Shown piece by piece: positions 2,986 through 64,000 of a stretch of 64,000 nucleotides of DNA. The position numbers and the translations under genes are program-made. The notes beneath the pieces were generated by a model. It saw only the letters and a program-made list of their open reading frames with translations. It was not told the DNA's origin and did not search any database. The DNA comes from Candidatus Aminicenantota bacterium (GTDB lineage Bacteria; Acidobacteriota; Aminicenantia; Aminicenantales; Aminicenantaceae). The stretch spans positions 119,475 to 183,474 of the forward strand of contig WVZL01000007.1 of assembly GCA_011772495.1 (NCBI GenBank), in the 5' to 3' direction. The number at the start of each line of letters is the position of its first letter. Positions within the stretch are counted from its first letter, which is position 1.

Positions 2986-3549
2986 ATGTCATTAATCCCG
3001 GCTTTTGAAATAGGATTATGGAATGCCTGGATTCTGACTATTTACTTTATTTTGACTGGCATGGTTCCACAATTTCTGGTTAGCAAGGAAAGAAAGGAGA
3101 AGATGGGATGGCCGCCGTTCAATAAAACCGAGAAAATCTTAGCTCTCATCACCCATGCTGTGATCATGCCTGTAGCCGCCATATATTCAATCTTTCTGCC
3201 ACTGAAATTAGGCACTGTATGGTTGTATGTTGGACTTCCCGTATGTTTCCTGGGGGGAATGATCCTTTTTATTGCTTGTATCAACATCATCGCGACTCCG
3301 CTTGGTGAGCCATTTTCCAAAGGTGTCTACCGCATTTCAAGACACCCGATTTATTTTGGCGGCTTTTTGGTATACCTTGGCATAGGCATTGCCTGTGCTT
3401 CCTGGCTATATCTGCTGTTCGCCTTTGCCTGGATAGTCCTGTGGAACATGGTATTGCCCACCGAAGAACGTGATTTAGTCGAGAAGTATGGCGATACTTA
3501 TCGTGAATACCTAGAAAGAACCCCAAGATGGATAGGAATCCCGAAATAA
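2986..3549 (+). CDS. Isoprenylcysteine carboxyl methyltransferase (ICMT)/PEMT-like membrane methyltransferase
   Basis: 187 aa, multiple TM segments, C-terminal YRISRHPIYFGGFL...EERDLVEKYGDTYREYLERTPRW motif. Confidence 0.8.
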   Translation: MSLIPAFEIGLWNAWILTIYFILTGMVPQFLVSKERKEKMGWPPFNKTEKILALITHAVIMPVAAIYSIFLPLKLGTVWLYVGLPVCFLGGMILFIACINIIATPLGEPFSKGVYRISRHPIYFGGFLVYLGIGIACASWLYLLFAFAWIVLWNMVLPTEERDLVEKYGDTYREYLERTPRWIGIPK

Positions 3550-3551
3550 AT

Positions 3552-3670
3552 GGGGTCAGACCAAGCTGATTGATTTATTATTAATAATTTATGGTCATTT
3601 TTTTGTAAAATTAGGCCTTAGAACAGTGATTTTAGGGTCGAAAACGTGCATTTAAGAAAGAATAGACTTC
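3552..3670. repeat. Truncated copy of ~225-bp TIR (MITE-like) repeat family
   Basis: Starts GGGGTCAGACCAAGCTgattgatt and shares interior (aGGcCTTAGAAcAGtGATTTTaGGGTCgAAAACgt) with copies at 27101 and 32439; right TIR not found. Confidence 0.6.
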
Positions 3671-3728: not shown

Positions 3729-4535
3729 TTATTGCTTCTCGCACCAAATTTTATGTAAGCCTGTGCTTTTTACAGTTATATAATTATTTCTTGTCCAATC
3801 CAGGTCATAGCTGCACAGACTTTTCCATACAAAGGCGTCTAGAAACTCGATTTGAATGGAAACTATTTGGTCTGAATCGACGCCTCGGGTCTCAGATTTC
3901 TTTTTGCGAACAATAGTAGGCGTGGGCTCCCATCTTCCGTTAATCTTTAACTTGTAGCGAATTCTGAATACAGAATCATTGTTAATGAAGACGTTAAATC
4001 TCCTGGTGGATCGATTCTGGGGGCAGTTTCTATTCACCGATAGTGATTTGATATCTCTCAACAGGGTGCCACGCAGGGAAGGAAGATCCTTGGTGATTCT
4101 CGTACAATATCCTGTGAAATTTTCGCCTTCGAATAAAGTGACGTGTACGAAGACCCTGAGCTTGATGGATTTAATTGGCACATTTCTTACAAAGTGTGAC
4201 ATCGGAGGATATCCAGTATATTTGTCGATCAGTCTGATCGCATCTGTATCCCAAAAACTGAGAGGATGGGTGTTTTCTGTTTCAACGTAGACCCGACGGG
4301 CATCACCTGAATAGTTCTCACGGCTATATACGAGAAAGTAGTGGTTCGGATTACCTGGATATGGCCTAGCTTGTGGCATCGGGCTATCAAAGCCAGCCTC
4401 GGCAGCGGCCTCCGCTAGACTCTTGTTCCAAGTAGAAACGGAATCATCGCCACTAGTTTTTGTGACGCTCGGCGGGGCCAGATAAAAGTGACATAAGATG
4501 ATGAGGCCTAAGATCATAACTTTTAAAACACGCAT
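3729..4535 (-). CDS. Secreted beta-gamma-crystallin-like protein (paralog 1)
   Basis: Signal peptide; two Greek-key motifs YxxxxYxG/FxxxxFxG (VYSRENYSG; LFEGENFTG). Confidence 0.6.
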   Translation of the reverse strand: MRVLKVMILGLIILCHFYLAPPSVTKTSGDDSVSTWNKSLAEAAAEAGFDSPMPQARPYPGNPNHYFLVYSRENYSGDARRVYVETENTHPLSFWDTDAIRLIDKYTGYPPMSHFVRNVPIKSIKLRVFVHVTLFEGENFTGYCTRITKDLPSLRGTLLRDIKSLSVNRNCPQNRSTRRFNVFINNDSVFRIRYKLKINGRWEPTPTIVRKKKSETRGVDSDQIVSIQIEFLDAFVWKSLCSYDLDWTRNNYITVKSTGLHKIWCEKQ

Positions 4536-4845
4536 GATTAACCTCCTAAATATTTGAATTTATAATGATTTGTTTTTATTTCATTCCGATCTGCCTTTAT
4601 AAAGAAGGCGTTTGTAAAAAGGAACTAAGAATCGGATAGCAAGAGAGACACTATGTATGTTTTTAAAATCTGCACGTCGAATCTCCCTCCTCTCGTCATG
4701 AAAGACCGCAAATCATGATGAGAGAAGGCACCGAGGCAAGCAATGCCAAGTTCGAACACTGATTGAAACTTTTATGTTCGGTCTGGAGATAGCAAAGCAA
4801 AAGAAATTGAAAAAGGAACTTGACGGGGGAGCCGAAGCCTGCTGC

Positions 4846-5628
4846 TCATTTCTTCTCACACCAAATTTTAATCCCTTTGTGCTTTATGGTTATAGTGTTG
4901 TGTCTTTTCCAGTCCAGATCATGCTTGCATAAGTCTTTCCATATCACCATATCCAGATGTTGTATTTCAATAGTAACTATTTGATTAGAACGGACGGAAG
5001 GAGTTTCTGATTTTCCGGCACGAACAGGATTCCAGAGCTCCCATTCCCCATTAACATTCAGTCTGTATCTAATTCTTGTCCCTCCGTTGTTTTGGATGGT
5101 AAAATTAAATATCTTGGTAGATAGATTTTGCGGGCAAGGGCCTTGTACTTTAATTGATCTGATATAATCCAATACAGGGCGCAGCGAGGGCGTATTCTTT
5201 GTAATCGTCAGGCAGTATCCCTTATAGTTTTCTTCTTCATATAAAGTGACAGAAACATAGGGATAAGTTTTGATGGATTTAATTCGAACATATATATACG
5301 ATTCCGGAGACCCTCCCCATTTATCACCTATTCTAATCCCGTCATTATCCCATAAGTAATACAGACGTGCACACTCAACTCCCGGGTAGTAGACGCGGTA
5401 GGCATTGCCTGTGTAGTTCTCCCCATCGTAAACCATAAAGTATTGACCCATCTGTTGAATTGCATTTGGCATCGCACAATCAAAGCCGGCGTCTGCGATG
5501 GGCTCAGATAGATTCTCGTCTCCAATAGAGACGGGATCATCGTCACCAGTTTTTGTGAGGCCAGGAGGGGTAAGATAAATAATACATAAAATGGTAAAAC
5601 CTAAGATCATTGTTTTTAAAATACGCAT
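4846..5628 (-). CDS. Secreted beta-gamma-crystallin-like protein (paralog 2)
   Basis: Clear paralog of 3729-4535; YDGENYTG and YEEENYKG motifs; shared signal peptide and C-terminus (KIWCEKx). Confidence 0.6.
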   Translation of the reverse strand: MRILKTMILGFTILCIIYLTPPGLTKTGDDDPVSIGDENLSEPIADAGFDCAMPNAIQQMGQYFMVYDGENYTGNAYRVYYPGVECARLYYLWDNDGIRIGDKWGGSPESYIYVRIKSIKTYPYVSVTLYEEENYKGYCLTITKNTPSLRPVLDYIRSIKVQGPCPQNLSTKIFNFTIQNNGGTRIRYRLNVNGEWELWNPVRAGKSETPSVRSNQIVTIEIQHLDMVIWKDLCKHDLDWKRHNTITIKHKGIKIWCEKK

Positions 5629-5673
5629 GATTAACCTCCTACATATTTGAATTTATTATGATTTCCTTCTTAT

Positions 5674-7413
5674 TCATTCTGATTGTTCCTTATTGACAAG
5701 AACCAACTCCCGCATGTAGAGCAGTTCTGGTTTGTGGCCTGTCATATCGAACAAGGCAAGGTTGATTCTTCGGCTTTCTGCTGGCGGGTTGATTAAAGAC
5801 GTTTCGAACACTTTTGTTTCTCCGGCCCCGAGGTTTTCCAGCAGCTTCTGATCGACCAGTTTATCGTTGAGTCGGACGCGCAGCAGCAAGTAGGGCCAAA
5901 CATGCCCGCTCGCATTCCGTATCCTTCCGTGCAGGATAAACGGCTGTCCCACTGGCGCCAGGATCATATCTCCGGTGAGGGCCAGAGGGCTGCCGTCCAA
6001 GCCGATTACCTTGTCGACCAATAATTCGGCTGTTCCTGCTGTAGTCCTTCCCGCAGCGACAAAATATCGGATGACGGGAATGGAAAACTCTACTGCAGGC
6101 TGGAGGATGTGAAGAGTGACTTCATGCAGCCCGGGAATGAGGGTAGGAAGTCCAGGCGGGTATCCTGAATCAATCGTGATTTGGTCAGCCATGGCGAGGA
6201 ATCGCGTCACCAAGCCAAAGGGATGGCCGTCGATCAGCCACTGGGCCTGCAGAATGCCCGTTCCTTCGTACTTGAGATCCACGAACACTCGCAAAGGGCT
6301 GGTACCCTTGGGGACGACAGTATAAGGCTTGCCGTCCTCGAAGCGCAGCTGAAGGTAAGAGATTGCGAAAGGCGCGCGAGAACCGGTTGCCGGTACAACC
6401 TTTACAGACAGAGAGACAGGGATCCGTTCGCCGTCTCGGATATCAAAGGCGGTCACGGCGTATAGGGCTTCCCGATTGTAGATGTGGGTGACGCTCAACC
6501 CGCTTCTAGGTAGAGACGTACCGTCTCCAAAATCCCAGTCAATGACCAGCGAGTCGAAATTGATGGCCATGAGCATTGCGGATTCTCCTACGCGTGGCTC
6601 CGGGGGTGTGCACGTGATAAGCCGCGGCGGAAGTATTGCGACGGAGACCATAGCCGTCTCTACGGCACCGCCTCCGTCATAGGCGCGTACTAAGTATGAC
6701 CCGCTAGTCGAATAGACATGGCTGATTTCAGGAGGCGAGGTATCGTTCTCTATTGTACCGTCGCCGAAATCCCAACGGATAAGAGTGGAGGAAGAGAAAT
6801 TCACGGCTGTAAAGACGACAGTCTCGCCAGCCCGCGGTTGGGAGGGTGCGAACCGAATAGAGGGCGGACTACCGACCTCAACGTTAGCCTTGATAGGGTG
6901 TTCCGAGGTTCCGGCCATGTCGATAGCGGTGACGATATAGACCCCGGCCGTTGCGTATATGTGGATTTCGGTTCTTCCTCCTAAAGGTAGGACTGTACCG
7001 TCACCGAAATCCCAATGCACCTGGTCGGAGAGGAAGTTGACGGCTGTGAAGGTGACGGGTTGAGTGGCTCTGGGCGAGGTAGGAGTGTAATCGATCAGGC
7101 GTTTTTCCCGGATGGTGATGGTCACAGTCTCCACCCCCACCAAACCACTGGCGCTGACAAGGTAGGTGCCCTGCTTGCGAAAAGCGTGTGTCACCGAGGC
7201 CCCGTTGGTAAAAACGACCGGAGTTCCATCGCCAAAATTCCAATCAAGCTCCGAGGCACCGGGGTTGGTTACGGTGAAAGTGACGGTTTCCTCTACATTT
7301 GGGTCTCCAGGCGTGTAGACGATGGCAGCGTTCGCAGGCAGAGCTAGGCCAAGGAGGATCATGGCCCCGAAGATATTTTTCCTCTTCAATACCAAGGTCC
7401 TGAACTGTCTCAT
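5674..7413 (-). CDS. Secreted protein with four PKD repeats
   Basis: Four FGDGT repeats (DWNFGDGT, HWDFGDGT, RWDFGDGT, DWDFGDGT); start likely MRQFRTLVLKRK at 7413, not 7467. Confidence 0.8.
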   Translation of the reverse strand: MRQFRTLVLKRKNIFGAMILLGLALPANAAIVYTPGDPNVEETVTFTVTNPGASELDWNFGDGTPVVFTNGASVTHAFRKQGTYLVSASGLVGVETVTITIREKRLIDYTPTSPRATQPVTFTAVNFLSDQVHWDFGDGTVLPLGGRTEIHIYATAGVYIVTAIDMAGTSEHPIKANVEVGSPPSIRFAPSQPRAGETVVFTAVNFSSSTLIRWDFGDGTIENDTSPPEISHVYSTSGSYLVRAYDGGGAVETAMVSVAILPPRLITCTPPEPRVGESAMLMAINFDSLVIDWDFGDGTSLPRSGLSVTHIYNREALYAVTAFDIRDGERIPVSLSVKVVPATGSRAPFAISYLQLRFEDGKPYTVVPKGTSPLRVFVDLKYEGTGILQAQWLIDGHPFGLVTRFLAMADQITIDSGYPPGLPTLIPGLHEVTLHILQPAVEFSIPVIRYFVAAGRTTAGTAELLVDKVIGLDGSPLALTGDMILAPVGQPFILHGRIRNASGHVWPYLLLRVRLNDKLVDQKLLENLGAGETKVFETSLINPPAESRRINLALFDMTGHKPELLYMRELVLVNKEQSE

Positions 7414-9481: not shown

Positions 9482-9720
9482 TCGTTTATCAAGGTTAGAA
9501 GTCTATTGGTCAATCCTAGCCGTTCGAAATCGCTTATTTTTAATGTTATAAATACTCTAAAAAATCGTAAAGATATGCTCAATCCTCTTTAAGGATGAAT
9601 CTTGCGATGATTTTTTTTTAATTTTTCATCACCCCCAAGGAGGATATTAAGCTTGAAGAGAAGTAGAAAAAATCTTCCAAAGAAGATAAATTTTAGACGC
9701 TTTACTTCCATACTTCTGGT

Positions 9721-9758
9721 GGGCGGTTAGCTCAGTTGGGAGAGCGCAGCGTTCGCAA
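9721..9758 (+). repeat. tRNA-Ala(CGC) 5'-half (putative att site, copy A)
   Basis: 38 nt identical to positions 1-38 of the intact tRNA at 15289-15361; homology ends in the anticodon loop. Confidence 0.85.
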
Positions 9759-10319
9759 GACGACATCCCCCCTGATGCGTAAATCCTTGATTTTGCCAGG
9801 AATATCAATATTATCAGCGACTTACCTTTAATCTTCCTTTTAGTCCCAGTTTCATATTTTTAGCAATTTTTAGTCTTTTTTGTCACAGATTGGGCACACG
9901 GGTATGAATTCATACTGAAATAGAGAAGCGGACACTATTTTCAGCGTAGGCCAGTCGAATTGTTATATTTACAATGTTGACACGCTTTTCTTTAAGAATT
10001 TGCATCTTTATTCAAGATATGGTAATAATTGAACAAAATGAGTTTTAAATTCTTCTAACTCAGCACAATAGACCTCCTTTCTGTTGAGATTTATTCGTGC
10101 TGTCTTATTTTTATGTTAAGGAACACAATCATGCTCCAGATAATAAAAATAGAAGATAAGAGTGTTTTTGATAGGAAAGAATACAGAATTCCATGAATTC
10201 CGCAAACGAGCAAGATAAACAAGGTAACACGGAATGGAAAAGAGATTGAAGGAAAGCGAGAATGCAAGATTGAATTGCGGAGAATACTTTTCTTCAGGAA
10301 GAGAAAGAGACGGAAAAAG

Positions 10320-12635: not shown

Positions 12636-12707
12636 ATTAAGTGAGAAAGTAGAAAAAAGACTCAAAAAGTGATAAATTTTTAGGTTCATTCATAATTGAT
12701 TTCTGGT

Positions 12708-12745
12708 GGGCGGTTAGCTCAGCTGGGAGAGCGCAGCGTTCGCAA
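12708..12745 (+). repeat. tRNA-Ala(CGC) 5'-half (putative att site, copy B)
   Basis: 37/38 nt identical to first 38 nt of tRNA-Ala at 15289; diverges in anticodon loop. Confidence 0.85.
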
Positions 12746-13270
12746 GAAGATAAACTCCCTGATGCATAGCACCTTCACTTTAAGAAAAATATCAATATTA
12801 TTAGCGATTTACCTTTGATCTTCTTTTCAGTTCCTTTGCCATATTTTCAGGTATTTTCAATCACTTTTGTCACATATTGGGCAGATGGGGAGACGTGGCA
12901 ACTTTCCTGCCTTGGCAAGAATCATCTCATTTCTATGAACTAACAGGAGTATTTGATGAAAGGAAGGTTGGCAGCGGGATTTGGATTTAAACCACCGACC
13001 TCCTGATTATATGCCTTTTGTATTTCGATCCGCTTAGAAATTCTAACTTGCTGATTTTAAATAAAATTAGTTTCAAAATAGAGAAATGTTGGGATATATC
13101 TTTAAAAATAAGTCTAGGTTATATGGACGGTCAATCAGTAAACGAGTCTCGGTTTATTTTAGTTTAGGATGGAAGGAATGGTCTTGAATAAACCATCCAC
13201 AGTGAACAGAAAAGAAAATCGTCGGGTTGAACCTTTGGAAATGATTCAACCCGACGAGTGAAATTTAATG

Positions 13271-14984: not shown

Positions 14985-15240
14985 ATGAGAAAAAGAGAAA
15001 TCGCCAATCTCAAAAGGGACCATGATTTGCACCATACTTATGCTTCAAGATTCGTTAGGACAAGAATGGACCTCACAATGGTTAGGGATTTATTGGGACA
15101 TCATTCAGTTAAAACCACAGAGCAATGTACACCTTCGAATCAAGAGCAGAAGAGAAAAGCAGTTGAGCTTTTAAGCAGTGAAAGCGATGGAAAAAAGACT
15201 GAAAAAGTGTTAAATTGGTCACTTGTTGGTCACACGGAAG
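14985..15240 (+). pseudogene. Degenerate tyrosine recombinase/integrase C-terminal fragment
   Basis: HDLHHTYASRFVRTRMDLTMVRDLLGHHSVKTTEQCTPSNQEQKRKAVELL matches HDLRHTxAS...LLGHxxxxTTxxYxH, with Arg->His and Tyr->Cys; no N-terminal domain. Confidence 0.8.
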
Positions 15241-15288: not shown

Positions 15289-15361
15289 GGGCGGTTAGCT
15301 CAGTTGGGAGAGCGCAGCGTTCGCAACGCTGAGGTCGGGGGTTCAAATCCCCTACCGTCCA
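15289..15361 (+). tRNA. tRNA-Ala (anticodon CGC)
   Basis: Folds by eye: acceptor GGGCGGT/ACCGTCC, D-arm GCTC/GAGC, anticodon arm CAGCG-TTCGCAA-CGCTG, T-arm GGGGG-TTCAAAT-CCCCT; 3' CCA not encoded. Confidence 0.93.
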
Positions 15362-15386
15362 CTTTCAGGAATGATTTGAGATAACA

Positions 15387-27097: not shown

Positions 27098-27100
27098 AAT

Positions 27101-27325
27101 GGTGTCAGACCAAGCTAAATAATTGATAATAAATAAAATGTTTTTTTGCTGCCTTTTTAGGTCTTAGAATAGCGATTTTGGGGTCAAAAACATCAATCTA
27201 ATAGGGTAAGAGTGAGTTTCTTAAAGTGATGATTTTGCCCAGGGAAATGGCGGTTTAAGAGCAAAAAATGGGCATAAATTTGACATATCTTGTTGATAAA
27301 AAAATAGATAGCTTGGTCTGACCCC
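27101..27325. repeat. MITE-like element with ~17-bp terminal inverted repeats (full copy 1)
   Basis: Left GGTGTCAGACCAAGCTA, right TAGCTTGGTCTGACCCC; interior homologous to 32439-32667. Confidence 0.8.
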
Positions 27326-27391
27326 AATTAAAAAATTAAAAAAAATGATTTTTCTTTTAGGTGGCTCTATATTAGAATTGTAGGGAAGAAG

Positions 27392-32438: not shown

Positions 32439-32667
32439 GGGGTCGGGCCAAGCTAACCAATTGATATTAAATAAATAGAGTGATTTTTTAGCGCCATTTT
32501 GAGTCTTAGAATGGCCATTCTGGGGCCAAAAACATCGGTTTAAGAGGGTAAGAGTTAAATGCTTAGAGCAGTGATTTTGCCTATAAAAAGAGCGGTTTAA
32601 GAGCAAAAAATAGGAAAAAATTGGATATATCTCGCTGATAAAAAAGGAGATAGCTTGGTCTGACCCC
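32439..32667. repeat. MITE-like element with ~17-bp terminal inverted repeats (full copy 2)
   Basis: Left GGGGTCGGGCCAAGCTA, right TAGCTTGGTCTGACCCC; interior shared with 27101 copy. Confidence 0.8.
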
Positions 32668-32684
32668 ATTAATAGGAGGGGAGA

Positions 32685-32799: not shown

Positions 32800-34440
32800 T
32801 TACTTCTTCTCCTTTTTCTTTTGCTCTTCCATCATTTTTTTCAGCTCAGCCAGTTTCTCTTTGATCATTTTTCTCTTTTCCGGGTCTTCAGTGTTTTTTA
32901 GCTTTTCTTTAAGTTCGAGCTCCACCTGTTCATATGTCTTTATGTTCACAATTGTTGCTTCTCCCTCTGCTTCTTTCAGCTTCTGTATCTTTTTCTTGAT
33001 TGCCGCTTTTTTTTCAGGGTCATCGGTGTTTTTATATGCTTCTTTCAGTTCAGCTATGACAACCGGGACCTTATGCACTTGGACCACCACTTGATTGTTC
33101 TTTATGGCCTCTTTTGTTTTCTGGATTTGTACCAACTTCTCCTTTATCATCTTCTTTTTTTCAGGGTCATCGGTCTCTTTATAGGCTGCTTTCAGTTCTT
33201 TCTCTTTCAGCGAGAGTTCTTTGACTTTATTCTCCGTAGCTTTCATCTTCTCATATTTCGCTAACTTCTTCTTTATCTGAGCTCGTTTTTCCGGGTCTTC
33301 GGTGGTTTCTAACTTTTTCTTCAGCTCAAGATAATGAGCCTTCATCTCTTCTTTCTTTTTTTCTGTTTTGATCATCAGATACAATTGTTCGAGTTTCTTC
33401 TTTATGGCTTCTCTTTTCTCCGGGTCTTCAGTCTTTTCCAGAGCCTTTTTCAACTTTTTCTCTTTCTCCATGTACTCTTTTTGCATCTTCTTTTCTTTGG
33501 CTTTCTTTTCTTCTTCTGTTTGAGCTGTGACTTTGGAATCGTCCTGGGAGAGTGTGGCCTTATCAACACTATCTTTTTCGGCAGGTGCTTTAGCAGGTTT
33601 TGATTCGGCAAAGGCCAGCACTAAAAGGGCGATGATCGGCAGGATCAACAGGACCTTGAATTTTGCCCTTCCCCTGGATTTGATTTTCTCCATCATGGTT
33701 ATCCTCCTTTTGATTTGTGAATGATTGAAATTGTTCGCGAATTCAAACAATTTCATACCCACATGCTGCTCGAAGATGAGCACTTGATACTTCGCCTTGC
33801 TGCAGCCCTGCGCAATGACTGCATTGTCAGCTAAGTATTCATGTGTTTCTTTCAATGATTTTTTGTACGGCCATACAAAAGGATTAAACCATTGGAAAAT
33901 GGCTAGCAATTCCATGAGAATCAAATCTATGGAATGATACTGCTTTATGTGAACCAATTCATGGGAGATGATTCGGCTGAAATCCGGCTCAGAAATATCA
34001 GACTTATTCACGAATAAGAAGTTAAAGAATGAAAAGGGAGCGGAATTTTTTTCGAGGAAAACAACATTCACTCCGTTAAACTTTTGGGAGCCGTATTTTT
34101 TTATCAACAGGAATAATTGGACGAGCTTATAAATAAAGCGCAGCAGGAAAAGCCCGGCGCCAACCAGGAATATCAATCCTAAAACATCAATGGTTCCTGG
34201 ATATTGAACTTGGGTTCCTCCCGGGAGCCCGGCGACGTATGTTTTCTCGACTAAAGGCCTGGCGGGAAACGGAGAGGGAATCTTAAGAAGCGGGATAAGA
34301 AATGAGATGGGAATAGAAAACAGTAAGAAAAATCGGTTGATCAAGAAAAAGGTTTCCTTTTTTAGGCAAGCCCAATAAACGATATAAAAAAGAGCCAGGC
34401 AAACTCCAGATTCGATAAGATATAAAATTGTATTATTCAT
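32800..34440 (-). CDS. M56 (BlaR1/MecR1-type) membrane metallopeptidase with Lys/Glu-rich repeat tail
   Basis: HELVHIKQYHSID and EYLADNAV peptidase motifs; tail contains five (E/D)DPEK(R/K)xxIKxKL repeats; no penicillin-binding sensor domain. Confidence 0.82.
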   Translation of the reverse strand: MNNTILYLIESGVCLALFYIVYWACLKKETFFLINRFFLLFSIPISFLIPLLKIPSPFPARPLVEKTYVAGLPGGTQVQYPGTIDVLGLIFLVGAGLFLLRFIYKLVQLFLLIKKYGSQKFNGVNVVFLEKNSAPFSFFNFLFVNKSDISEPDFSRIISHELVHIKQYHSIDLILMELLAIFQWFNPFVWPYKKSLKETHEYLADNAVIAQGCSKAKYQVLIFEQHVGMKLFEFANNFNHSQIKRRITMMEKIKSRGRAKFKVLLILPIIALLVLAFAESKPAKAPAEKDSVDKATLSQDDSKVTAQTEEEKKAKEKKMQKEYMEKEKKLKKALEKTEDPEKREAIKKKLEQLYLMIKTEKKKEEMKAHYLELKKKLETTEDPEKRAQIKKKLAKYEKMKATENKVKELSLKEKELKAAYKETDDPEKKKMIKEKLVQIQKTKEAIKNNQVVVQVHKVPVVIAELKEAYKNTDDPEKKAAIKKKIQKLKEAEGEATIVNIKTYEQVELELKEKLKNTEDPEKRKMIKEKLAELKKMMEEQKKKEKK

Positions 34441-61299: not shown

Positions 61300-61590
61300 G
61301 TCGTACCTGCAAATATAACGCCGTTATTTATCTTAACAGTGTTATATATAAAAGGCAACAATGAAAAGTTCCAAGCCATTCTACAAAAAGAAAAAAAATG
61401 CCGGCGCTGTTCTTCGATTCCCGGTTGCCTGATCTCTAATTGCCAGTTTGATCTATCAGTGGCATAGAAGTTGATTGGAAAGAAAAGGATAAGGAAAGTG
61501 GCTTTGAATTTACTTGGTCTTTGACCAGGATAAGATTTAAATGAATTTATAAATATAATTCAAGTTTGATGTGCAGCAAGGGAAGATAAA

Positions 61591-61633
61591 TGGTGGGCGA
61601 TACAGGATTTGAACTTGTGACTTCTACCGTGTG
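61591..61633 (-). repeat. tRNA-Val(TAC)-like 3'-half including CCA (putative att site, copy D)
   Basis: Reverse complement ends ...CACGGTAGAAGTCACAaGTTCAAATCCTGTATCGCCCACCA; no matching 5' half. Confidence 0.75.
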
Positions 61634-61928
61634 TAAAAGGCACAAAAAGAGGAGAATGCGTAGAAAATAAGGGATTTCCTCTGTAAGCTATCGAGTACTA
61701 GACTTTTGGAATCTCGAATTTTTTTGATATTTTTATGGATTTTTCTGTATTCTGGACAAATTTTGGGCACACTTTGGGCATAGTTATTGTTTAAAACTAA
61801 TTGTTCTCATGATGCTGTAGTGAAGACTAGTTCAAATCGTCTGTATTATCTGTTCTGAAATTCACTGCAAGGTGAGGCTGTAGGTGACACGGTGGAAATG
61901 GTCGCGGTTCTAGGAGAAAACAGAAGGG

Positions 61929-63407
61929 TCAATCCAAAGGAGGCAGGTCGATGCCCATTCGCTGGGCATCGTCCTTCATGATGCTCATCAGTGCTTTGAG
62001 CGAATCGTCCGGCAGCGGTTCCACTGTGTGGGAACTCATGACTCTCTCGACTTCCTCGCACGCCCGATCCCAGGCGCTCTTTTTCCCATGGCTCTTCCAG
62101 ACATCATATGTATCACGGTCAATCACCGAACCGGCCTGATCCAGTTCCTCACGATGCCACCGACGCGTCTCATCCGAAGCTAAAAAATGATTCCCATCGT
62201 AAATATCCCCGTACAGATCGCCACCCAATCGATCTCCCCGGGCTTCGATACCCCTGACCAATCGGAGAGCCATGCCGCAGATCTCGTTATCCAGAACGAG
62301 TTTTTCCAGACTCTGACAGCTCTCGAAATTCAGCATACCCGGACCGGAGATGACGTTCGCACCCGCTAGAGCCGCAAAGAGCGCTCCCATTCCTGTCTCC
62401 AACCCCGCCTGTCCGTCGACGATTTTAGCGTCGGAAAGTCCCATGTAAGCATGAGTGGGAAGCCCCAGATGTTTCCCGATCTGAACATAAGCAGCATCGA
62501 TCATCATCGTCTCCATGGCTCCCAAGGGTGTCGTTCCTTTCCGCATATCAAACGCTGCGGGAGAACCCCCAAAAATGATGGGCGATCCCGGGTGGGCTAA
62601 TTGGTGAATGACAATGCCACTCAGGTTTTCGGCAGTCAATTGCACCAATGTGCCGGCCAGCGTTACCGGAGACGTGGCTCCGGTTAGTGGCATAGATATC
62701 AGTTCGGCGGGAATCCCTGCCTTGGATGCATCGATGAGACTCTGACAGGTCAAGTCGCTCCATTTCAGCGGAGGTGAGGGGCAGCAGTCAAAAATTGCCA
62801 GAGGTTTCTCTCTAAGCGCGCTTTCACTCCCCCGGACTGCCACCAGCATATCCTTCATGATCTCAAAACTCTCCACAGCAAAAGTACCAGTCACTACCGG
62901 TTTCTTGCTGAACTGCAGTCCGATGTATAACCGATACCTGTCTTGCATGGCTTCCGGGACATCGGTGGAAATCATTTCTGTACTCTGTGCTGCAATGTTA
63001 GGGAGGGCATCGGTCAATGTCGTAAAACGAATGAGATCCCTGGTTACTGGACCTCTTTCTTCCAATGTAATCGGATCCAAAATCGTCAAAGCCCCGGAGC
63101 CTGGATCAAAGTGAATCTCATCACCTTCCAGATTCATCGTCAGATCGCCGCTGCGGTCATACACTTTTATGGAATGAGGCGTGGTTTTCAGGGACTCTTC
63201 GACAAGGTTTTCCTTGAACGACACCGTTTGCCCTTTACATTCGCATCCTGCGTCTGCGAGAAGCCGTAACGCTTCATCGTTCTCTACGAGCACGCCCGTT
63301 TTTCCCAGAACATCCAATGCTTCAGAAACAATCTGATCAATGAACGATTCGGACAGCATGTCTAGCTTTGGTCTCTTCGTTTCTAACATCGTATCCTCCT
63401 TCATCAT
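61929..63407 (-). CDS. Trimethylamine methyltransferase (MttB) superfamily protein, no in-frame amber
   Basis: 492 aa; IVSEALDVLGKTGVLVENDEALRLLADAGC, DPGSGALTILDP, EELDQAGSVIDRDTYDVW. Confidence 0.85.
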   Translation of the reverse strand: MMKEDTMLETKRPKLDMLSESFIDQIVSEALDVLGKTGVLVENDEALRLLADAGCECKGQTVSFKENLVEESLKTTPHSIKVYDRSGDLTMNLEGDEIHFDPGSGALTILDPITLEERGPVTRDLIRFTTLTDALPNIAAQSTEMISTDVPEAMQDRYRLYIGLQFSKKPVVTGTFAVESFEIMKDMLVAVRGSESALREKPLAIFDCCPSPPLKWSDLTCQSLIDASKAGIPAELISMPLTGATSPVTLAGTLVQLTAENLSGIVIHQLAHPGSPIIFGGSPAAFDMRKGTTPLGAMETMMIDAAYVQIGKHLGLPTHAYMGLSDAKIVDGQAGLETGMGALFAALAGANVISGPGMLNFESCQSLEKLVLDNEICGMALRLVRGIEARGDRLGGDLYGDIYDGNHFLASDETRRWHREELDQAGSVIDRDTYDVWKSHGKKSAWDRACEEVERVMSSHTVEPLPDDSLKALMSIMKDDAQRMGIDLPPLD

Positions 63408-63640
63408 TGCATATCATACATTATTCGGAATATCTTACATTATTCTTGGCAAGAATGCACTTGCTTCCCTTAGGAAGCTGTTGAGACCATCGGAGATGAG
63501 CAGTTAAAAAAGCAAAATGAAAATAGGAACCGTGCAATTTTATGATGTGGCCAGGATTGTGACTAAATATTACCAATTTTGCTGAAATTGGAGGACAGGA
63601 AAAAAATAGGGTTTCTATCTGATGATACTAAATGAAATAA

Positions 63641-63683
63641 TGGTGGGCGATACAGGATTTGAACCTGTGACTTCTACCGTGTG
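63641..63683 (-). repeat. tRNA-Val(TAC)-like 3'-half including CCA (putative att site, copy E)
   Basis: Same 43-nt fragment as 61591 (one T/C difference seen), followed by homologous arm sequence. Confidence 0.78.
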
Positions 63684-64000
63684 TAAAAGGCACAAAAAGA
63701 GGATAAGTGGAAAAAATAAAAGATTTCCCCAGTAGACTGTCGAGAATCAGGCGTTTGGAATTTTGAAGTTTTTTGATATTTTTATAGATTTTTTGATATT
63801 CTTGACAAATCATGTTCACAGTTTAGTCACAGTTTACGCAATACGTGGTGAAATAACTGATTTCGCGACATATTGTTCATAAATATTTTGAGATATTTCC
63901 CCGCCCCACAACTACTGTTTGTCAAGATGGACCATCTCTCGTCAACATCTAGTTACATCTAAGGCAAGCTAGTCTGACTTTTGGCTTAAGCTTACCAGGC

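What the first reader, a model, noticed from the sequence alone, without database searches (positions are those of the whole stretch)
61591..63790. Second array: tRNA-Val 3'-half repeats flank an MttB-family gene
Two ~190-bp direct repeats (61591-61783 and 63641-63830) each begin with the 3' half of a tRNA-Val(TAC)-like gene on the minus strand, cut at the anticodon loop, and continue into near-identical arms (GTGTAAAAGGCACAAAAAGAGGA...TTTTTTGATATTTTTAT). They enclose only the 1.5-kb MttB-family gene and spacer, about 2.05 kb. The architecture parallels the tRNA-Ala array but uses the opposite tRNA half, suggesting a general anticodon-loop cassette mechanism in this genome.
Basis: partly seen in the sequence, partly recalled or inferred. 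Interest (0 to 1): 0.7.

Follow-up and report, generated by a model that had tools for sequence, protein, structure and literature searches.

The report
Single-gene cassettes anchored in split tRNA-Val
In an uncultured Aminicenantes bacterium a single methyltransferase-family gene sits between two broken-off tRNA-Val halves, and related genomes show that this is one unit of a widespread row of tiny integrase-less DNA cassettes that an integrase has stacked into the anticodon loop of that tRNA gene.

Summary
The repeats are real: two ~195-bp direct repeats (61591-61785, 63641-63837; 83% identical), each a tRNA-Val 3' half cut at the anticodon loop plus a ~150-bp arm, enclosing one MttB-family gene. 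The tRNA is Val(CAC), not Val(TAC). The contig ends at base 64000, and neither an intact tRNA-Val(CAC) nor its usual neighbour gene was found in this MAG, so the prediction cannot be tested here. It holds in relatives: of 95 genomes of the order (Ca. Aminicenantes), 17 carry 28 arm-bearing copies, often in arrays of ~2-3 kb units starting at intact tRNA-Val(CAC), with integrase remnants abutting the tRNA in a few. Cassettes carry attachment arms and one or two cargo genes (AbiEi/AbiEii, kinase, amidohydrolase, MttB) and no integrase. The integrase frame runs through the tRNA half into the arm, so integration changes its C-terminus; the window's tRNA-Ala array shows the same with the opposite (5') half. 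Best reading: an accretion array of integrase-deleted (CIME-like) elements at a tRNA anticodon loop, a known kind in a miniature, order-wide, both-halves variant. Whether cassettes still move is untested.

The parts
61591..61633 (-). distal tRNA-Val(CAC) 3' half (attachment core), 1 mismatch to the order consensus, in the T-stem
61634..61785 (-). right attachment arm of the MttB cassette; ends in the direct repeats ATGCCCAAAGTGTGCCCAAA (61762-61781, minus strand)
61590..61670 (+). remnant 3' end of an integrase reading frame: MVGDTGFELVTSTV encoded by the tRNA half, then CKRHKKRRMRRK* in the arm
   Evidence: frame conserved over 22 of 25 arm copies
61929..63407 (-). cargo: 492-aa MTTB-family protein, sole gene of the cassette
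   Evidence: 93.6% identical gene in an array on L095
63546..63640 (.). left attachment arm, homologous to the left end of an element next to an intact tRNA-Val(CAC) in G020
   Evidence: 77.6% over 147 bp including the core, E = 5e-20
63641..63683 (-). proximal tRNA-Val(CAC) 3' half, identical to intact tRNA genes of relatives
63684..63837 (-). right arm of a further, upstream cassette that is cut off by the contig end at 64000
9718..9902 (+). tRNA-Ala 5' half plus arm (companion array, copy 1)
12705..12889 (+). tRNA-Ala 5' half plus arm (companion array, copy 2)
15018..15137 (+). remnant of a tyrosine integrase C-terminus directly upstream of intact tRNA-Ala
   Evidence: (PF00589, E = 2.3e-4, below the Pfam cut-off), frame
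15289..15362 (+). intact tRNA-Ala(CGC) at the end of the companion array

Best explanation
The segment is the distal unit of an accretion array of small integrative elements at tRNA-Val(CAC). A tyrosine integrase recombined an element's attP with the anticodon loop of the tRNA gene; the element-borne 3' half restores the tRNA and the displaced 3' half marks the far end. Repeated insertion at the restored tRNA stacks units, each ending in right arm plus tRNA 3' half. The units seen here lack the integrase and keep only attachment arms, the core and one or two captured cargo genes, here an MttB-family gene, so they could move only with an integrase supplied in trans or together with a neighbour. 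The parental integrase frame ran through the tRNA half into the right arm (VGDTGFEPVTSTV|CKRHKKxxKRK*), so integration cuts off its basic tail. The tRNA-Ala array in the same window is the mirror form, with the 5' half as core and a short acidic tail. Shown: repeats, arrays, arms, intact tRNA at array ends in relatives, integrase remnants and frame. Inferred: crossover chemistry, trans-mobilisation, role of the tail, and presence of intact tRNA-Val beyond this contig.
For: Repeat pair. Profile of arm plus core: 28 arm-bearing copies in 17 of 95 genomes of the order at E <= 3e-15. Arrays beginning at intact tRNA-Val(CAC): G053 2.8 and 2.7 kb, G039 2.6, 1.9 and 11 kb, G003 2.1 kb, L096 2.1 kb, G016 4.5 kb. 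Halves carry lineage-specific bases of their own host's tRNA (G053, G016, L096), as expected of displaced halves. Integrase adjoining the tRNA: G092 (234-aa frame, PF00589 E = 8e-20, ending MVGDTGFEPVTSTV*), G061, and fragments in G039, G093, G009. Continuous frame across a junction in L095. Tail: 62% K/R in frame versus 24% and 30% in the other frames, stop at codon 24 in 22 of 25 copies, G almost absent from codon position 1 (9 of 242 versus 111 and 93). Same arm motif and integrase-tail layout at tRNA-Ala. Cassette cargo without integrase.
Against: No intact integrase of this family was found in the sampled genomes; all tRNA-Val-adjacent copies are truncated, IS-interrupted or cut by a contig end, so activity is unproven and the arrays may be fossils. 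The intact tRNA is not on this contig. pN/pS of the tail does not separate its frame from one alternative frame (0.66 versus 0.64 and 1.19). Expected ageing of cores away from the tRNA holds in only part of the arrays.
Confidence: 0.85

Rival explanations
1. Dead remnants: decayed prophages or islands integrated one after another at tRNA-Val, with no cassette mobility; internal deletion left the ends and an occasional gene. (This shares the integrase origin with the best explanation and differs only in denying unit mobility.)
For: Integrase fragments only; IS insertion into the G092 integrase; one 211-bp unit in G093 is just two fused arms; mutated cores.
Against: Many units have a similar small size with a complete, open cargo ORF (492, 829, 794, 578 aa; AbiEi/AbiEii pairs) and intact arms; some cores are identical to the host tRNA.
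Confidence: 0.4
2. Local tandem duplication or assembly duplication of a tRNA fragment, with no integrase involved.
For: Two direct repeats near a contig end.
Against: 17% divergence between copies; same arm plus tRNA half with different cargo in many independent assemblies, including within-contig arrays; attachment-arm motifs and integrase frames.
Confidence: 0.02
3. An integron-like system: cassettes exchanged one by one at a fixed site by a dedicated resident recombinase.
For: Arrays of small units with one or two genes and a shared recombination module; cargo switching, e.g. MttB in two arrays in opposite orientation.
Against: No resident recombinase gene at the arrays; the core is a tRNA half with integrase-type arms; cargo orientation is mixed; units resemble deleted integrative elements.
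Confidence: 0.1

Closest known systems
tDNA genomic islands with anticodon-centred attachment sites (Islander, PMC4383910)
   Same: tRNA plus displaced tRNA fragment in correct order and orientation, anticodon-loop crossover, tyrosine integrase; both 3' (3760 of 3919) and 5' (159) fragments known; tandems known (125 of two or more, 4 of three or more)
   Different: Units here lack an integrase and are ~2 kb; Islander requires an integrase and at least 2 kb, so such arrays are largely invisible to it.
Dehalococcoides ssrA-GI arrays with integration-module-less islands (PMC3146451)
   Same: Tandem islands at one tDNA, each ending in a target-gene direct repeat with conserved flank; 15 islands lack the integration module and are interpreted as possibly cis-mobilizable
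   Different: Serine recombinase, tmRNA T-loop, islands carrying reductive dehalogenases; here tyrosine integrase, tRNA anticodon loop, units of about 2 kb.
CIMEs and accretion (ICESt1-type elements; cited in PMC3146451)
   Same: Elements with att ends and no recombination or transfer genes, placed next to one another at one site
   Different: No ICE seen beside these arrays; mobilisation not tested.
Mx8 IntP and archaeal suicidal integrases (PMC4701971, PMC8371274)
   Same: attP lies inside the integrase gene, so integration changes the product (Mx8: 112-residue C-terminus replaced by 13 residues)
   Different: Here only the last ~12 (Val) or ~7 (Ala) codons are split off, and the preceding ~13 codons are the tRNA half itself.
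Tycheposons (Prochlorococcus; Methylophilaceae, PMC10872708)
   Same: Tyrosine-recombinase cargo elements associated with tRNA genes
   Different: Described there as 4-200 kb elements; no array of about 2-kb units; different lineage.

Membership tests
tDNA genomic island (Islander definition) | tRNA fragment with intact cognate tRNA in correct order and orientation | tested here: met
   Met in relatives; in this genome the intact tRNA-Val is off contig. The tRNA-Ala array has its intact tRNA in the window.
tDNA genomic island (Islander definition) | contains an integrase gene | tested here: not met
   MttB cassette has none; relatives' small cassettes have none; a few tRNA-adjacent elements keep truncated ones.
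CIME (cis-mobilizable element) | both att ends retained, no recombination or transfer module | tested here: met
   Right arm and core, left arm shared with G020, only MttB inside.
CIME (cis-mobilizable element) | can be mobilised with a neighbouring or incoming integrative element | not testable with these tools
   needs excision and transfer assays or read data
Integron cassette array | IntI-type integrase beside attI, cassettes bearing attC hairpins | tested here: inconclusive
   No phage-integrase-family gene lies at the window's tRNA-Val array, and relatives' arrays hold only remnants; the core is a tRNA half. attC folding was not tested.
Integrase gene spanning attP (Mx8-like) | integrase reading frame continues across the att core | tested here: met
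   Frame and stop position conserved, inferred from junctions; no intact circular element seen.

The most novel reading that the evidence does not exclude
Aminicenantes maintain live, integron-like gene-capture arrays at tRNA anticodon loops: ~2-kb cassettes of one or two genes with a two-armed attachment module, moved in trans by integrases whose C-terminal tail is removed by integration, using either tRNA half because the anticodon stem is a palindromic core.
Probability: 0.2. Interest if true: 0.78.

Novelty: new variant of a known kind. Interest (0 to 1): 0.52.

Why it matters
It shows how small an integrative element can become while keeping its attachment machinery, and points to an order-wide reservoir of one- or two-gene cassettes (toxin-antitoxin-like pairs, kinases, methyltransferases) that island finders requiring an integrase miss. 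The integrase frame running through the tRNA half suggests why such elements keep an intact tRNA half, and gives a testable switch in integrase activity between free and integrated states. Breaks of MAG contigs at these repeats may also explain 'missing' tRNA genes.

Tried and rejected
tRNA-Val(TAC) as target: rejected, sequence differs. Assembly or local duplication: rejected. Extending past 64000: contig ends there. Locating the missing locus by its conserved zinc-ribbon neighbour: no match in the MAG. Exact core in IMG/VR contigs: none; integrase relatives in viral contigs and phages only at <50% identity, and the viral loci lack this tail. pN/pS of the integrase tail: not discriminating. 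Age gradient along arrays: mixed. Phylum-crossing transfer for the copies in Spirochaetales- and Bathyarchaeota-labelled MAGs: set aside, because contigs L234 and L096 look like misbinned Aminicenantes DNA by gene content and tRNA type, an inference. First guess that the arm is an ordinary coding region along its whole length: rejected, only its first ~36 nt keep a frame.

Full report
Observation. Two ~195-bp direct repeats at 61591-61785 and 63641-63837 were confirmed. They are 83% identical, so 'near-identical arms' overstates it. On the minus strand each reads arm, then a tRNA 3' half including CCA. Between them lies a single gene, a 492-aa MTTB-family protein. The window is the end of contig C39 of a 3.28-Mb, 49-contig MAG, and the contig stops at window base 64000. 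Relatives sharing these elements are titled Candidatus Aminicenantes.

Which tRNA. The half matches tRNA-Val(CAC), not TAC. In relatives the intact gene reads ...CTACC-TTCACAC-GGTAGAAGTCACAGGTTCAAATCCTGTATCGCCCACCA and the half copies begin within the anticodon loop. The MAG's own tRNA-Val(TAC) has another sequence. A scan of the MAG for tRNAs found Val(TAC) and Val(GAC) but no Val(CAC), and the zinc-ribbon gene that precedes tRNA-Val(CAC) in several relatives was not found either (which has no positive control in that genome). The simplest reading is that this stretch is missing from the assembly, broken at the repeats.

Arrays in relatives. A profile of arm plus core (201 positions) found 28 arm-bearing copies (E <= 3e-15) in 17 of 95 genomes of the order (my count from the table). 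Several contigs show an intact tRNA-Val(CAC) followed downstream by successive half copies: G053 (2.83 and 2.71 kb), G039 (2.62, 1.94 and 11 kb), G003 (2.12 kb), G016 (4.5 kb), L096 (2.08 kb); other contigs show half-to-half units without the tRNA (window 2.05 kb, G029 2.06 kb, L095 2.39 kb). Halves often carry the bases peculiar to their own host's tRNA (G053, G016, L096), as expected if they are displaced host halves.

Arms. The right arm ends in direct repeats GTGCCCAAA-N-TGTGCCCAAAA, typical in layout of integrase arm sites (interpretation), ~150 bp from the core. The same motif occurs in the tRNA-Ala array arms of this window and beside tRNA-Asp of the same genome. Left ends are conserved too: many units begin CTTTCTTTTCAACAACTTGCG...GGTGTGACCAAAACTGTGAC, the reverse complement of the last integrase codons, and the window cassette has a second left-arm type shared with G020, where it lies next to an intact tRNA-Val. 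So the MttB unit keeps both attachment arms.

Integrase. Tyrosine-integrase pieces abut the outer end of the tRNA or half in G092 (234-aa open frame, IS3-like gene beyond it), G061 (cut by the contig end), G039, G093 and G009; none is complete in this sample. In the tRNA-Ala array a weak integrase match lies just before intact tRNA-Ala.

Integrase frame across the core. In G092 the integrase ends ...KKMVGDTGFEPVTSTV*, the last 14 residues being encoded by the tRNA half and the stop formed by the anticodon loop. In half copies the frame instead runs on: VCKRHKKKGKRKI*, VCKRHKKRRMRRK* (window 61590-61670), VWRKQRKNIRRRK* and so on. Over 22 in-frame copies the tail is 62% Lys/Arg in this frame against 24% and 30% in the others, the stop column is TAA/TAG/TGA, and G is nearly absent from codon position 1. 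pN/pS did not separate the frames, and relatedness of copies inflates the composition signal, so this is moderate evidence. In L095 one continuous frame joins integrase remnant, tRNA half and tail. The tRNA-Ala system shows the same design: WAVSSVGRAQRSQ encoded by the tRNA 5' half, then DDIPPDA*, EDKLPDA*, DADMPDA* in the arm, versus RSQR* at the intact tRNA.

Cargo. Units carry AbiEii-family genes with partner genes (G003, G029, L096), a protein kinase (G053), an amidohydrolase (G004) and MttB (window, L095), in mixed orientation. The MttB gene is instructive: the window copy and the L095 copy are 93.6% identical over 1496 bp with no gaps, the homology stopping at the stop codon and ~19 bp before the start, while the spacers are unrelated, and the gene lies in opposite orientation relative to the tRNA halves. 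Homologues at 87-90% protein identity in G020 and G011 have no arm within the stretch read. The gene was therefore placed into these arrays in two different ways; how is unknown.

Comparison with the known. Anticodon-centred tDNA islands, 5'-fragment islands and tandems are all known (PMC4383910). Tandem islands at one tDNA in which about half lack the integration module were described at ssrA in Dehalococcoides and interpreted as possibly cis-mobilizable (PMC3146451). attP inside the integrase gene is known in Mx8 and in archaeal suicidal integrases (PMC4701971, PMC8371274). What is new here, as far as the searches went, is the combination: an order-wide set of about 2-kb, one- or two-gene, integrase-less units at a tRNA anticodon loop, in 3'-half (Val) and 5'-half (Ala) forms, with part of the integrase C-terminus encoded by the tRNA half. 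Three literature searches gave no report of it in Aminicenantes; most subscription journals are not held.

Verdict. The structure is a new variant of a known kind; the mobility of the units and the role of the tail are inferred, not shown.

Noticed in passing
L095:5797-7292 versus window 61931-63426: The MttB gene is shared at 93.6% with borders at the ORF (stop codon; ~19 bp before the start), unrelated spacers, and opposite orientation relative to the tRNA halves: two separate placements of one gene into such arrays by an unknown route.
   Followed up: partly
G000:C48:199441-199624 (L079): The same arm motif lies directly downstream of intact tRNA-Asp(GTC), followed by a small ORF: a third tRNA in this genome used by a related element.
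   Followed up: partly
L133:9566-9851 (G093:C379): A 211-bp unit made only of left arm fused to right arm between an intact tRNA-Val and a half: an 'empty' cassette, apparently a deletion between arm repeats.
   Followed up: partly
L058 (G053:C327) and L130 (G064:C97): Apparently the same array (same unit sizes and matching junction sequences) in MAGs placed in different families: contamination or very recent transfer.
   Followed up: no
L235:1-1171 and L236:6954-7002 (Spirochaetales-labelled genome G095): A genuine-looking Spirochaete tRNA-Val(CAC) with a phage-type integrase downstream and, elsewhere, a half copy with a different arm: an unrelated element using the same anticodon loop.
   Followed up: partly
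window 3546-3604, 27100-27330, 32470-32673: A dispersed family of repeats containing GGGGTCAGACCAAGCT, in direct and inverted copies (199-nt pair at 27128 and 32470, 80% alike).
   Followed up: no
window 4369-4607 and 5462-5700: A 239-nt direct repeat, 75% identical, of unknown nature.
   Followed up: no
window 32854-33456: Five ~63-nt repeats at 129-147-nt spacing, probably a repetitive coding sequence.
   Followed up: no
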